A DNA stretch of 64,000 nt from Paludibacteraceae bacterium (GTDB lineage: Bacteria > Bacteroidota > Bacteroidia > Bacteroidales > Paludibacteraceae). The notes under the pieces were generated by a model. It worked only from the letters and a program-made list of their open reading frames with translations, was not told the DNA's origin and made no database searches. Positions 45,976 through 50,978 of this stretch are shown here, piece by piece. How positions within the stretch are numbered: the stretch's first letter is position 1; each line of letters starts with the position of its first letter. Made by a program: the position numbers and the translations under genes. The DNA is taken from positions 55,699 through 119,698 of the forward strand of contig CAJOFU010000003.1 of assembly GCA_905233935.1 (NCBI GenBank), given 5' to 3'.

Positions 45976-46710
45976 ATGATTATCAAGCATTTAGGAGAAT
46001 ATTGGCTATTGATGGCGCGGGTGTTCCACATCCCTGACAGACAAAGGATGTTTTGGAGGCAGTTCAGCCGCGAACTGGAAAAACAGGGATTGCAGTCCTT
46101 GCCGATTGTGATTGTTATATCCCTTTTCATCGGTGCTATTCTGACCATACAAGCGAAGATCAACACGGAAAATCCGTTTCTGCCGACGTATATCGTAGGT
46201 CTATTGACCCGCGAAACCTTGCTGTTGGAGTTCTCGTCAACGATTCTTTGCCTTATCTTGGCGGGTAAGGTCGGTTCGAACATCGCTTCCGAGATCGGCA
46301 CGATGCGTATTACCGAGCAGATTGACGCCATGGAGATCATGGGCGTGAACTCTGCCAATTACCTTATTCTGCCGAAGATTCTGGCATTTATGACCATGAT
46401 GCCCATGCTGGTTATCCTGTCCACAACCATCGGTATCATCGGCGGATGGGCGGTCGGACAATTTACAGACATCATCACCGTGGCGGATTACTTGGTGGGT
46501 GTGCAATACGCATTCAACCCGTACTTCGTGTGGTACGGAATCATCAAGTCGCTGTTCTTTGCGTATATTATTACGTCGCTGTCGTCGTACTACGGCTATA
46601 TGGTACGAGGCGGCGCTCTTGAGGTAGGCAAAGCTTCAACGAACGCGGTGGTTAATTCGAATATTATCATCCTGTTGATGGATCTTGTGCTCTCGCGATT
46701 ACTGTTATGA
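45976..46710 (+). CDS. mlaE: MlaE-family ABC transporter permease
   Basis: Inner-membrane permease of the Mla phospholipid transport system. It has 244 aa and about 5-6 helices, with LPIVIVISLFIGAILTIQAK, the conserved EIGTMRITEQIDAMEIMG and a final SSYYGYMVRGGALEVGKAST. It overlaps mlaF by 4 nt. The substrate-binding mlaD gene normally follows mlaF, but here a prodomain/peptidase pair does, so MlaD must be elsewhere. Confidence 0.93.
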   Translation: MIIKHLGEYWLLMARVFHIPDRQRMFWRQFSRELEKQGLQSLPIVIVISLFIGAILTIQAKINTENPFLPTYIVGLLTRETLLLEFSSTILCLILAGKVGSNIASEIGTMRITEQIDAMEIMGVNSANYLILPKILAFMTMMPMLVILSTTIGIIGGWAVGQFTDIITVADYLVGVQYAFNPYFVWYGIIKSLFFAYIITSLSSYYGYMVRGGALEVGKASTNAVVNSNIIILLMDLVLSRLLL

Positions 46711-47465
46711 TTCAAGCGATTGACATAGTAAAAAGATTCGACGACCTGCTGGTGCTCGATCATGTGAATGCCACGTTTGAGGATGGTAAGGTCAACATGA
46801 TCATCGGTCAGTCGGGTAGCGGCAAAACAGTGCTGCTCAAGTCGCTCATCGGTATTCATCCTATCAATTCCGGGCGAATAGAATATGATGGCAGAAACCT
46901 GCCTAACATGAAGGAGAAAGAAGTGCGCATGTTGCACCGTGAGGTAGGCGTGTTGTTCCAGGGCTCAGCGCTTTTCGACTCGATGACGGTACTCGAAAAC
47001 GTTCTTTTCCCCATGCAGATGTTCGGCAGGATGACCAACGAGGAAATGAACGAACGTGCACGGTTCTGCCTCAATCGTGTGCAGATAGCCGAACATGCAC
47101 TGACGCTGATGCCTGCGGAGATCTCCGGCGGTATGCAGAAGCGCGTAGCTATTGCCCGTGCTATTGCACTCAACCCCAAGTACCTGTTCTGCGACGAACC
47201 GAACTCAGGCTTGGATCCCCAGACCTCGCTTGTGATTGACAAACTTATCCAGGACATTACCCGCGAATATAACATCTGCACCATCGTTAACACCCACGAC
47301 ATGAACTCCATCATGGAAGTGGGCGACAACATTATCTTCCTCAAGGGCGGCAAGAAAGAGTGGCAGGGTTCGTGTGACGACATCTTCCACGCCGACAACG
47401 AAGCGCTGAACAGCTTCGTCTTTGCCTCACAATTGTATCAAAAAATACGACAGGCGCAAAAGTAG
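46707..47465 (+). CDS. mlaF: MlaF-family ABC transporter ATPase
   Basis: ATPase partner of MlaE. Walker A GQSGSGKTVLLKSLIG, signature SGGMQKRVAIARAIALNP, Walker B LFCDEPNSGLDP, and H-loop VNTHDMNSIMEVG. Length 252 aa. Its end is followed by 130 bp of spacer with TTATCGG repeats. Confidence 0.94.
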   Translation: MIQAIDIVKRFDDLLVLDHVNATFEDGKVNMIIGQSGSGKTVLLKSLIGIHPINSGRIEYDGRNLPNMKEKEVRMLHREVGVLFQGSALFDSMTVLENVLFPMQMFGRMTNEEMNERARFCLNRVQIAEHALTLMPAEISGGMQKRVAIARAIALNPKYLFCDEPNSGLDPQTSLVIDKLIQDITREYNICTIVNTHDMNSIMEVGDNIIFLKGGKKEWQGSCDDIFHADNEALNSFVFASQLYQKIRQAQK

Positions 47466-47600: not shown

Positions 47601-47969
47601 ATGAAAAAATCATTATTCATACTTTTGGCTTGCATGGCATTCGTCCTCAGCGGCCACGCACAGGAGCCTGCACGTGTTCCGGCTTATCCGGGAGTAATAA
47701 CCCGCATTCAGCCGAGTGGTGATACGCTGCACGTCTATCTGCGCGGTGACGAGCGCTGGCACTTCATGATGACCGTTGACGGCTGGGAGGTCAATGAGGA
47801 CAACAAGGGCAAGATCTGTTACAACAAGCTCAAGACCCGCAAGATTGACGGCGAGAAGAAACAGGTTTCTGTTGCCACACGCCGTGTTGCCCATGATGCC
47901 GACAAACGCAGCAAGTGCGAACAACGCTGGCTCAACAAACGCGGCGTACAAAAGATGCAAATAAACTAA
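47601..47969 (+). CDS. Secreted prodomain-like protein of M6-type peptidases
   Basis: 122 aa with signal peptide MKKSLFILLACMAFVLSGHAQ. The mature part (VPAYPGVITRIQPSGDTLHVYLRGDERWHFMMTVDGWEV) resembles the N-terminal prodomain of M6 metallopeptidases in other Bacteroidales. It is here its own gene, ending with a basic tail (RSKCEQRWLNKRGVQKMQIN). Seven nt later the catalytic protein begins, with its own signal peptide. It may be a trans-acting propeptide or inhibitor; that is inference. Confidence 0.78.
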   Translation: MKKSLFILLACMAFVLSGHAQEPARVPAYPGVITRIQPSGDTLHVYLRGDERWHFMMTVDGWEVNEDNKGKICYNKLKTRKIDGEKKQVSVATRRVAHDADKRSKCEQRWLNKRGVQKMQIN

Positions 47970-47976
47970 CCCGATT

Positions 47977-49449
47977 ATGCAACGAATTCTACCTGTTCTG
48001 TTTCTTTGTTGCTCACTACTCAGCGTAGCGAGCGTGCCGCCGCGTGATCCGTCGAAATGGGCAGAGTGGCAACAGAGTTCGCAACGAAGACTTGCTCATG
48101 CTCCTGCCGCACAGCAAGCGGTCGGTACGCGTACGATCATCCCGCGCGTCTTGGTCATCATGACGAACTTCACCGACTACGAACTGGTTTCCACAAAAGA
48201 GGACGTGGATTCGATGTTCAATGCCCAGAACTGGACGAAAGACGATGCCAAAGGTAGTATACGTCAATACTTGTACGATCAATCTAACGGTGCGTATAAC
48301 CCGCAGTTCGACATCGTCGGACCTGTGACGCTGTCGAATGGCTACGCTTATTACGGTCAAGGTCAGAGTGTAAGCAGCCGAGCGGGATATATGGTTACTG
48401 AAGCTTGCGCATTGGTGGATGACGAGGTGGACTTCACGCTCTACGACTCCAACAATGACGGGTATATTGATCTGGTATATATCTTTTACGCCGGCTTCGG
48501 CGAAAATGACCCGCCGAAGTATTTTACTGTAGTAGCCAGTGATTTAATTTGGCCTGCTTATTGGACTGTTAATGGTGCAGGGTGTGGAACGAATCGTCGC
48601 GTATTTGACGGTAAAACGCTGAATGCTTTTGAGTACAGCAACGAATTGGATGGTTACTACTCCACACCCGAGAAAATTGTAGTTTCCGGTATAGGCGTTG
48701 CCTGCCATGAGTTCGGGCACGCACTTGGTTTGCCGGATTTGTATTATACCGGCTCGGGTAATGCAAACCACAAGCTGTTAGGCGCGTGGGATATAATGTG
48801 TTATGGTCCGTACAACGATGATATGCACTCACCGCCCTCGTACTCTGCCTACGAGCGGTTCTTCATGGGTTGGCTCACGCCCGAACTGATTACCGAGGCG
48901 GATGATCTCTCGCTGGAGCATATTGCCACCAGCAACAAGGCATATCTCATCGTCGAAAGTGATGAGCACAATATGGACGGCGTTAGTCCTAATCCTGCGG
49001 TATTCTATCTGTTGGAGAACCGCCAACGTGAGAGTTGGGATAGAGATGTTCCCGGTGATGGATTGTTGATCACGCGCATAAATTACCAACGCTCGTTGTG
49101 GACGTCGAACCATGTCAACAACGACCCGAACAACATGGGCGTGGATATCATCGAGGCGGATGGTTTGACGCCAACTACCGACATTGCTGATGGCTATTTC
49201 GGCAAACCCGGTGATGCTTTCCCCGAAGGCGCAACGGAGTACACCGATATAACCGATCACGCTATTACCGACATCACCATGACCGATGGCATCGTGTCGT
49301 TCAAGTACCGTGGCGGCAAACCCACTGACCCGACGGGTGATCATTCACCTGTTACAAATCAGCAAAGCACCTACAAAACAATTCAGAACGGACAACTGCT
49401 CATTCACACGAACGGGCAGATATACAATATTTACGGCATTCAGCAATAA
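47977..49449 (+). CDS. Secreted M6-family metallopeptidase
   Basis: 490 aa, signal peptide MQRILPVLFLCCSLLSVAS. The zinc site is VACHEFGHALGLPDLYY. RVLVIMTNFTDYEL, IRQYLYDQSNGAYNPQFDIVGPVTL and GAWDIMCYGPYNDD are M6-like. It lacks the usual N-terminal prodomain, which is encoded by the preceding gene. The last 23 residues (IQNGQLLIHTNGQIYNIYG) are a short tail like that of the OB-fold protein at 1884. Probably an extracellular or surface protease. Confidence 0.9.
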   Translation: MQRILPVLFLCCSLLSVASVPPRDPSKWAEWQQSSQRRLAHAPAAQQAVGTRTIIPRVLVIMTNFTDYELVSTKEDVDSMFNAQNWTKDDAKGSIRQYLYDQSNGAYNPQFDIVGPVTLSNGYAYYGQGQSVSSRAGYMVTEACALVDDEVDFTLYDSNNDGYIDLVYIFYAGFGENDPPKYFTVVASDLIWPAYWTVNGAGCGTNRRVFDGKTLNAFEYSNELDGYYSTPEKIVVSGIGVACHEFGHALGLPDLYYTGSGNANHKLLGAWDIMCYGPYNDDMHSPPSYSAYERFFMGWLTPELITEADDLSLEHIATSNKAYLIVESDEHNMDGVSPNPAVFYLLENRQRESWDRDVPGDGLLITRINYQRSLWTSNHVNNDPNNMGVDIIEADGLTPTTDIADGYFGKPGDAFPEGATEYTDITDHAITDITMTDGIVSFKYRGGKPTDPTGDHSPVTNQQSTYKTIQNGQLLIHTNGQIYNIYGIQQ

Positions 49450-49455
49450 AATAGT

Positions 49456-50220
49456 ATGAAACTCGTATCGTACAATGTTAACGGCATTCGCTCGGCTTTG
49501 AGCAAAGGACTGCTTGAGTGGCTGGCAACCGCTAATCCTGACGTGTTCTGCATCCAAGAGAGCAAAGCACAACCCGAGCAGATCGACACCACCGCTTTCG
49601 CCGAACTCGGTTACACCTCGTATATCCACTCGGCTGAGAAGAAAGGGTACTCTGGCGTGTGTATCTTCTCCAAACAACCCGCCGACAAGATTGTAGCCGG
49701 CATGCACAACGACCGCTATGACCGTGAGGGACGAGTGCTGCGTGCAGACTTCGGCGATCTGACCGTAGTGTGCGTCTATGTGCCCAGCGGTACAACGGGC
49801 GACATACGTCAGGAGTTCAAGATGGATTTTCTGGAAGTCTTCCTTAAGTGGCTCAACGAACTGCGCAAAGAACGTCCGAACGTGATCATCTGCGGCGACT
49901 TCAATATCTGCCACAAACCCATTGACATCAATCATCCTGAGCGGCAGATCGGCGTCAGTGGCTTCCTGCCAGAGGAGCGCGAGTGGATGGATCGTTGGCA
50001 AGAGACAGGATTGATCGACACGTTCCGTGTGTTCTGCGATGCGCCTGAGATGTACAGTTGGTGGTCATATCGCGCCGGAGCACGTGCACACAATGCCGGT
50101 TGGCGTATCGACTACTTCTGGGTGAGCGAACCGCTGCGTGACAAGTTGCGCGACGCCCGCATCCACAGCGATGCCGTCCATAGCGACCATTGTCCGGTGT
50201 CGTTGGAAATTGACAATTGA
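49456..50220 (+). CDS. xth: Exodeoxyribonuclease III
   Basis: AP endonuclease and 3' exonuclease of base excision repair. Seen: [49 protein letters not shown], and the final [12 protein letters not shown]. Length 254 aa. It begins 6 nt after the M6 peptidase. Confidence 0.96.
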
Positions 50221-50234
50221 TAGTTAAAGAGAAC

Positions 50235-50978
50235 ATGCAGACACTGCGTACAGAACATCTGATCAAGAAATACGGTAAACGTACTGTCGTCAATGACGTC
50301 AGTATTCAATTGGAGCAGGGCGAGATAGTCGGTCTGCTGGGACCGAACGGAGCAGGCAAAACGACAACGTTCTATATGACCACCGGCTTGGTGGTTGCCA
50401 ACCACGGGAAGATTTTCCTCGACGATCAGGATATAACCTCATTCCCTATGTACAAACGTGCGCAAATGGGTATAGGTTATCTGCCGCAAGAGGCATCCGT
50501 CTTCCGCAAAATGACCGTTGAGGACAATATCCTTTCCGTTCTGGAAATGACGAATTTCAGCAAGGAGTATCAGCACGAGAAATTGGAGCAACTCGTCAAG
50601 GAGTTCAACTTGGAGCACGTGCGCACGAACCTCGGTGACCGTCTGTCAGGTGGTGAACGCCGACGCACGGAGATTGCCCGCTGTCTGGCTATTGAGCCGA
50701 AGTTCGTGATGCTTGACGAACCGTTTGCAGGCGTTGACCCGATTGCCGTGCAAGAGATCCAAGACGTAGTGTGGCGACTGAAAGACAAGAATATCGGCAT
50801 CCTCATCACCGACCACAATGTGGATGAGACGCTCTCCATCACCGACCGCGCTTACCTGCTGTTTGAGGGAAAGATTCTTTTCCACGGCACGCCGGAAGAG
50901 TTGGCTGCAAACCCCGTTGTGCGTAACAACTACCTCGGTCGTGACTTCGAACTCAAGCGCAAGACGAAAGTGGAGTAG
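50235..50978 (+). CDS. lptB: LPS export ABC transporter ATPase LptB
   Basis: Energises LPS extraction from the inner membrane. The ATG at 50235 ([19 protein letters not shown]) is preferred over TTG at 50217, which overlaps xth. Walker [20 protein letters not shown], signature [19 protein letters not shown], Walker [21 protein letters not shown] and [12 protein letters not shown]. Length 247 aa. It begins a run of envelope genes. Confidence 0.96.

What the first reader, a model, noticed from the sequence alone, without database searches (positions are those of the whole stretch)
47601..49449. M6 peptidase split into a secreted prodomain and a catalytic protein
The N-terminal region seen in other M6 enzymes is a separate gene with its own signal peptide, 7 nt before a catalytic gene with another signal peptide. 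This is a gene fission, not a frameshift. The prodomain could act in trans as chaperone or inhibitor.
Basis: partly seen in the sequence, partly recalled or inferred. Interest (0 to 1): 0.6.

Follow-up and report, generated by a model that had tools for sequence, protein, structure and literature searches.

The report
Stand-alone prodomain partner for M6 protease
Next to a secreted zinc protease, these rumen bacteria keep a second gene that makes only the protease's 'safety catch' (prodomain) as a separate exported protein; it is an old gene found across the genus, not a freshly broken piece, and here the protease has lost its own catch and seems to depend on the separate one.

Summary
The two genes are real and at the stated coordinates. 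ORF1 (47601-47969, 122 aa) is homologous to M6 prodomains. ORF2 (47977-49449, 490 aa) is an M6 zinc peptidase with its own signal peptide, an intact HEFGHALGLPD site and no prodomain. This is not a frameshift or an assembly error.

'Gene fission' is the wrong history. The syntenic locus mlaE-mlaF-[stand-alone prodomain]-M6-exoA-lptB is present in nearly every sampled genome of the genus. In 27 of 39 loci the stand-alone gene sits upstream of an M6 that still has its own prodomain. All stand-alone copies form one group (bootstrap 94), apart from the genus's attached prodomains. In the window's lineage the protease lost its own prodomain and only the separate one remains. In sister lineages the stand-alone gene has been fused onto the protease, which points to a functional pair. 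A species in another order made the same arrangement independently, as a lipoprotein duplicated from its own protease's prodomain.

Best reading: a trans-acting M6 prodomain (folding helper and/or latency inhibitor), analogous in layout to SpeB-Spi and potempin-KLIKK pairs. Trans action is inferred, not shown. Structure predictions failed (pLDDT 34 and 47). New variant of a known kind.

The parts
47601..47969 (+). ORF1: stand-alone M6-type prodomain protein (122 aa); signal peptide MKKSLFILLACMAFVLSGHA; core VPAYPG...QPSGD...LRGDE..H...DGW...C-Y...; basic helix-like tail KRSKCEQRWLNKRG
   Evidence: dN/dS about 0.12
47977..49449 (+). ORF2: M6 zinc metallopeptidase (490 aa) with signal peptide but no prodomain; 'VPPRDPS' probably the vestige of the VPARRD prodomain start
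48706..48738 (+). catalytic motif HEFGHALGLPD (HExxHxxGxxD)
   Evidence: sequence
49365..49446 (+). C-terminal tail STYKTIQNGQLLIHTNGQIYNIYGIQQ, matched by about 48 other places in the same genome (a probable sorting tag); absent from ORF1
   Evidence: 20 of 20 checked lie at the exact C-terminus
45976..47465 (+). upstream syntenic neighbours: MlaE-like permease and MlaF-like ATPase genes (named from sequence similarity)
49456..50978 (+). downstream syntenic neighbours: exonuclease III-like (exoA/xth) and LptB-like genes (named from sequence similarity)

Best explanation
ORF1 is a dedicated trans-acting prodomain for the M6 peptidase ORF2. Shown: it is homologous to M6 prodomains; it belongs to an old stand-alone gene lineage kept directly upstream of M6 genes throughout this genus of rumen Paludibacteraceae-related bacteria; and in this clade ORF2 has lost its own prodomain. 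Inferred: both proteins are exported by Sec; ORF1 binds the catalytic domain in the periplasm, helping it fold and/or blocking its active site. ORF2 carries a C-terminal tag common in this genome and is then moved to the surface or medium, leaving behind or degrading ORF1, which lacks the tag. Where the downstream protease keeps its own prodomain, the stand-alone copy would act as a second guard in the periplasm. In some species it carries a lipobox, which would hold it at a membrane.
For: Homology. One orthologous locus in about 39 contigs: 27 stand-alone + M6 with own prodomain; 5 stand-alone + M6 without (window, G001, G007, G010, G029); 3 fused (G033, G017, G419; a fourth fused gene, G005, lies outside the recognised context); 3 M6 with own prodomain and no stand-alone gene (G022, G034, G004); 1 stand-alone only (G026); none with an M6 lacking every kind of prodomain. 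The fused proteins use the stand-alone type as their only prodomain. The clade G005/G017/G419 (with G029) is sister to the window's clade in the catalytic tree (SH-aLRT 99), and G033 fused separately. Stand-alone + fused prodomains form one group. Co-divergence with the M6 beyond species markers: partial r 0.40, 0 of 2000 permutations, against about 0.20 for exoA or mlaF. Purifying selection. An independent origin of the same layout in another order, as a lipoprotein paired with its own M6's prodomain at bootstrap 99. Lipobox forms within the genus in G016 and G012.
Against: No binding or activity data. Both structure predictions failed. M6 genes without a detectable own prodomain also occur elsewhere in these genomes with no stand-alone neighbour, so this type of peptidase may not strictly need a prodomain and the loss in ORF2 is not by itself proof of trans complementation. 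In G026 the stand-alone gene persists where the M6 has gone from the locus. In two other lineages it occurs with no M6 nearby.
Confidence: 0.66

Rival explanations
1. Gene fission: a single-chain M6 gene was split, a stop and a new signal peptide arising between prodomain and catalytic domain.
For: Single-chain proteins with the same prodomain type exist in the sister clade; with 82 columns the AU test cannot strictly exclude the window's ORF1 grouping with attached prodomains (p 0.06-0.15).
Against: The stand-alone gene is at the same place in 27 loci with an M6 that keeps its own prodomain. Stand-alone prodomains form one group with the fused ones nested inside. Fused proteins keep, just after the stand-alone C-terminus, a VPAR/CPPR vestige of the M6 mature N-terminus. 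ORF2's own signal peptide + VPPRD start matches the usual M6 start. Fission would need a new signal peptide.
Confidence: 0.08
2. The stand-alone protein is a specific inhibitor/immunity-type protein that protects the cell's own envelope from the M6 enzymes (potempin- or Spi-like), with no role in folding. (This overlaps with the best explanation, which leaves inhibitor versus chaperone open.)
For: Gene directly upstream of the protease; lipobox forms; most partners keep their own prodomain, so folding help looks redundant; stand-alone gene retained without M6 at the locus in G026.
Against: In the window's clade and in the fused proteins it is the only prodomain, so it can take the normal prodomain position; no inhibition data.
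Confidence: 0.4
3. ORF1 is a decoupled relic with another function (for example envelope stress or sensing) and its place beside the M6 is only inherited synteny.
For: Stand-alone copies without an M6 neighbour in G026, G116, G220 and one other genus.
Against: Strong purifying selection, repeated fusion onto the M6, co-divergence, independent re-invention next to an M6 in G501.
Confidence: 0.12

Closest known systems
M6 peptidases (immune inhibitor A, PrtV; TIGR03296/PF05547) with N-terminal prodomain
   Same: Catalytic domain and HExxHxxGxxD site; ORF1 homologous to the prodomain of Bacteroidales members.
   Different: Prodomain encoded by a separate secreted gene; ORF2 has none of its own.
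SpeB-Spi (propeptide-like inhibitor encoded beside the streptococcal C10 protease; Kagawa 2005, as described in PMC2873492)
   Same: A small gene beside the protease encodes an analogue of the protease's own propeptide.
   Different: Unrelated protease family (cysteine C10, not zinc M6); ORF1 is exported; inhibition is not shown here; here some proteases have lost their own prodomain.
Potempins of Tannerella forsythia (small lipoprotein inhibitors directly preceding KLIKK protease genes; PMC7296668)
   Same: Bacteroidales, small exported protein gene directly upstream of a secreted protease; lipobox forms exist (G016, G012, G501).
   Different: ORF1 has a signal-peptide-I-like leader; the proteases are M6, not KLIKK; I know of no prodomain origin for potempins and did not test homology.
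Staphostatin-like Bfi inhibitors beside C10 proteases of Bacteroides fragilis (PMC2873492)
   Same: Small exported protein gene within 35 bp of the protease.
   Different: Bfi proteins show no identity to propeptides; ORF1 does.

Membership tests
M6 metallopeptidase (ORF2) | Curated M6 domain model above cut-off | tested here: met
   TIGR03296 172 bits, cut-off 110.8; PF05547 52.9 bits, cut-off 22
M6 metallopeptidase (ORF2) | HExxHxxGxxD zinc site | tested here: met
   HEFGHALGLPD
M6 metallopeptidase (ORF2) | Own N-terminal prodomain, as usual in this group | tested here: not met
   no hit with the attached-prodomain profile, whereas 92 of the 114 M6 ORFs examined have one; this does not bear on M6 catalytic membership
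M6 prodomain (ORF1) | Sequence homology to the N-terminus of single-chain M6 proteins | tested here: met
M6 prodomain (ORF1) | Prodomain fold as in solved M6 zymogens | tested here: inconclusive
   no PDB sequence match; AlphaFold pLDDT 47 and 34
Product of gene fission | ORF1 nests with the attached prodomains of the partner's lineage | tested here: not met
   stand-alone clade bootstrap 94; constraint 29 log-units worse, AU p 0.06-0.15; synteny
Propeptide-like inhibitor (Spi type) | Homologous to the protease propeptide and encoded next to the protease | tested here: met
Propeptide-like inhibitor (Spi type) | Inhibits the cognate protease | not testable with these tools
   needs an enzyme assay
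Potempin | Small lipoprotein directly preceding the protease gene | tested here: not met
   ORF1 precedes the gene directly but shows a type-I-like signal peptide by inspection; relatives in G016, G012 and G501 do have lipoboxes
Potempin | Homology to known potempins | not tested
   no sequences fetched

The most novel reading that the evidence does not exclude
M6 prodomains have repeatedly been copied into separate exported (lipo)protein genes in Bacteroidia, making a dedicated trans-acting latency factor/chaperone family that guards the periplasm until the protease crosses the outer membrane. In the window's lineage the protease has become wholly dependent on it; in sister lineages the pair has re-fused.
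Probability: 0.5. Interest if true: 0.65.

Novelty: new variant of a known kind. Interest (0 to 1): 0.52.

Why it matters
One orthologous locus shows every step of a prodomain moving between acting in cis and in trans: duplicate beside intact partner, partner's own copy lost, re-fusion, loss of the duplicate, loss of the protease. That makes the general question of when a prodomain must be covalently attached directly testable with natural proteins. It also gives a candidate endogenous control protein for a widespread secreted protease family of gut and rumen Bacteroidales. I found no report of it for M6, but the library searched is partial.

Tried and rejected
(1) Frameshift or assembly error: rejected, independent assemblies agree. 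(2) Gene fission: rejected as history. (3) My own idea that M6 genes lose their prodomain only where a stand-alone copy is present: not supported. Of 22 M6 ORFs with no prodomain hit, about two thirds have no stand-alone neighbour; these include truncated or frameshifted ORFs, shortened prodomains and forms with a different N-terminus. (5) PDB search with the ORF1 family profile: no hit. (6) Quick-tree AU tests were unreliable because the free search was worse than the constrained ones; redone with fuller searches. (7) Literature searches for an M6 prodomain acting in trans: none found.

Full report
Observation. The window holds ORF1 (47601-47969, 122 aa) and, 7 nt later, ORF2 (47977-49449, 490 aa), both on the + strand. 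ORF2 is an M6 peptidase: TIGR03296 at 2e-50 and PF05547 at 4e-14, both above the curated cut-offs, with HEFGHALGLPD and a WDIMCYG Met-turn-like stretch. ORF1 alone hits no Pfam or NCBIfam model. Both begin with signal-peptide-like sequences (MKKSLFILLACMAFVLSGHA|QEPAR; MQRILPVLFLCCSLLSVAS|VPPRD), judged by eye because no predictor was available.

Is ORF1 a prodomain? Yes. A profile of 31 ORF1-type proteins (A1) finds the N-termini of single-chain M6 proteins over the order Bacteroidales at E down to 1e-26. Against the attached prodomains of the same genus, hhalign gives 99.6% and E 6e-24. In four single-chain M6 proteins ORF1 aligns with residues 1 to about 117 (43-50%) and ORF2 with the remainder (42-45%), in the same order.

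Real gene or broken gene? The ORF1 and ORF2 homologues are separate in two other assemblies, G001 (6 nt apart, same frame) and G007 (21 nt apart). dN/dS for ORF1 is 0.12-0.13, and 0.08-0.13 for other stand-alone pairs. The pair is neither a frameshift nor decaying.

History. In the other genomes of the genus the locus is conserved as mlaE-mlaF-[stand-alone prodomain]-M6 (one to three copies)-exoA-lptB. By my count: 27 loci have the stand-alone gene plus a first M6 with its own prodomain; 5 have the stand-alone gene plus a first M6 without one (window G000, G001, G007, G010, and G029, where the region is degenerate); 3 have the two fused in one frame (G033, G017, G419); 3 have only an M6 with its own prodomain (G022, G034, G004); 1 has only the stand-alone gene (G026). 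A further fused gene (G005) is outside the recognised context. No locus has an M6 lacking every kind of prodomain, although with only three loci lacking the stand-alone type this is not a statistical test.

Trees. In the prodomain trees all 33 stand-alone proteins of the genus and the 4 fused ones form one group (SH-aLRT 84; ultrafast bootstrap 94), apart from the genus's attached prodomains, with the fused ones nested inside. Forcing the window's type into the attached group costs 29 log-likelihood units; with only 82 columns the AU p-values are 0.06-0.15, so the sequence test alone is suggestive and synteny is the stronger argument. In the catalytic-domain tree the window, G001 and G007 are sister to G029 plus the fused G005/G017/G419 (SH-aLRT 99); G033's fusion is separate. 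After the stand-alone part, the fused proteins carry 'AHVPARR' or 'APCPPR', matching the mature start of ordinary M6 proteins, as expected if a deletion removed the stop and signal peptide. The direction is therefore duplication, then loss of the partner's own prodomain, with occasional fusion, rather than fission.

Independent origins. In G501, from another order, a 174-aa lipoprotein prodomain (lipobox SGC) overlaps the start of an M6 that keeps its own prodomain; these two prodomains pair at bootstrap 99, so the same layout arose again. Two genomes of one genus (G116, G220) have lipoprotein prodomains, and three genomes of another (G309, G219, G115) have non-lipoprotein ones; in both cases no M6 lies nearby. 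Within the window's genus, G016 and G012 have lipobox forms.

Function. The best reading is a trans-acting prodomain. The arguments are: fusion (one clade plus one separate case); the window clade's protease having no other prodomain; co-divergence of stand-alone and M6 beyond species markers (partial r 0.40, 0 of 2000 permutations; exoA and mlaF give about 0.20); purifying selection; and the independent re-invention. Against it: prodomain-less M6 proteins exist elsewhere without a stand-alone neighbour, and the stand-alone gene can persist without an M6 at the locus. Whether it is a chaperone, an inhibitor or both cannot be decided here. The GDE motif is invariant in all stand-alone and fused forms of the genus and present in 76 of 88 attached ones; it is a candidate zinc-site or cleft-binding motif (inference). 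ORF2 ends in a tail (KTIQNGQLLIHTNGQIYNIYG) matched at about 48 other places in this genome; 20 of 20 checked are at the exact C-terminus. ORF1 lacks it. The genome also has 14 matches to the classical type IX sorting-domain model. This suggests that the protease travels further than its partner (inference).

Known relatives. The layout resembles SpeB-Spi, where Spi is a propeptide analogue encoded beside the protease (PMC2873492), and the potempin-KLIKK pairs of Tannerella, small lipoprotein inhibitors encoded directly before the protease (PMC7296668). It is not a member of either: the protease family differs and inhibition is untested. I found no report of an M6 prodomain acting in trans in the papers searched.

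Limits. All genomes are draft or metagenome-assembled; G012 shows two copies of the locus and about 6% contamination. Both structure predictions were too poor to use.

Noticed in passing
window 49365-49446; G000 loci L198-L217: A C-terminal tail of about 25 residues (K.I.nGQLlI..nGk.YN.lG) is matched at about 49 places in this genome including ORF2; 20 of 20 checked sit exactly before the stop. No NCBIfam model covered it on ORF2 or on three others tested. Possibly a short type IX-like sorting tag.
   Followed up: partly
L218 4136-7001 (G501): Independent lipoprotein prodomain gene overlapping the start of an M6 gene that has its own prodomain, in a different order.
   Followed up: yes
L137 2685-5727 (own genome, contig C37): A paralogous M6 whose prodomain and catalytic part lie in different frames (a frameshift or assembly error); its sister L168 in G007 has the prodomain in frame. 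This is what a truly broken M6 looks like.
   Followed up: partly
L076 4328-4681 (G026): Stand-alone prodomain gene alone between mlaF and exoA, with no M6 at the locus.
   Followed up: partly
L121, L122, L124; L118, L119: Orphan stand-alone prodomain proteins in other Bacteroidales: one genus beside a topoisomerase/gyrase-like gene, another with lipoprotein forms; no M6 nearby.
   Followed up: partly
L153 (G016), L178 (G012): M6 proteins with a lipoprotein-like start and about 270 extra N-terminal residues in place of the prodomain.
   Followed up: no
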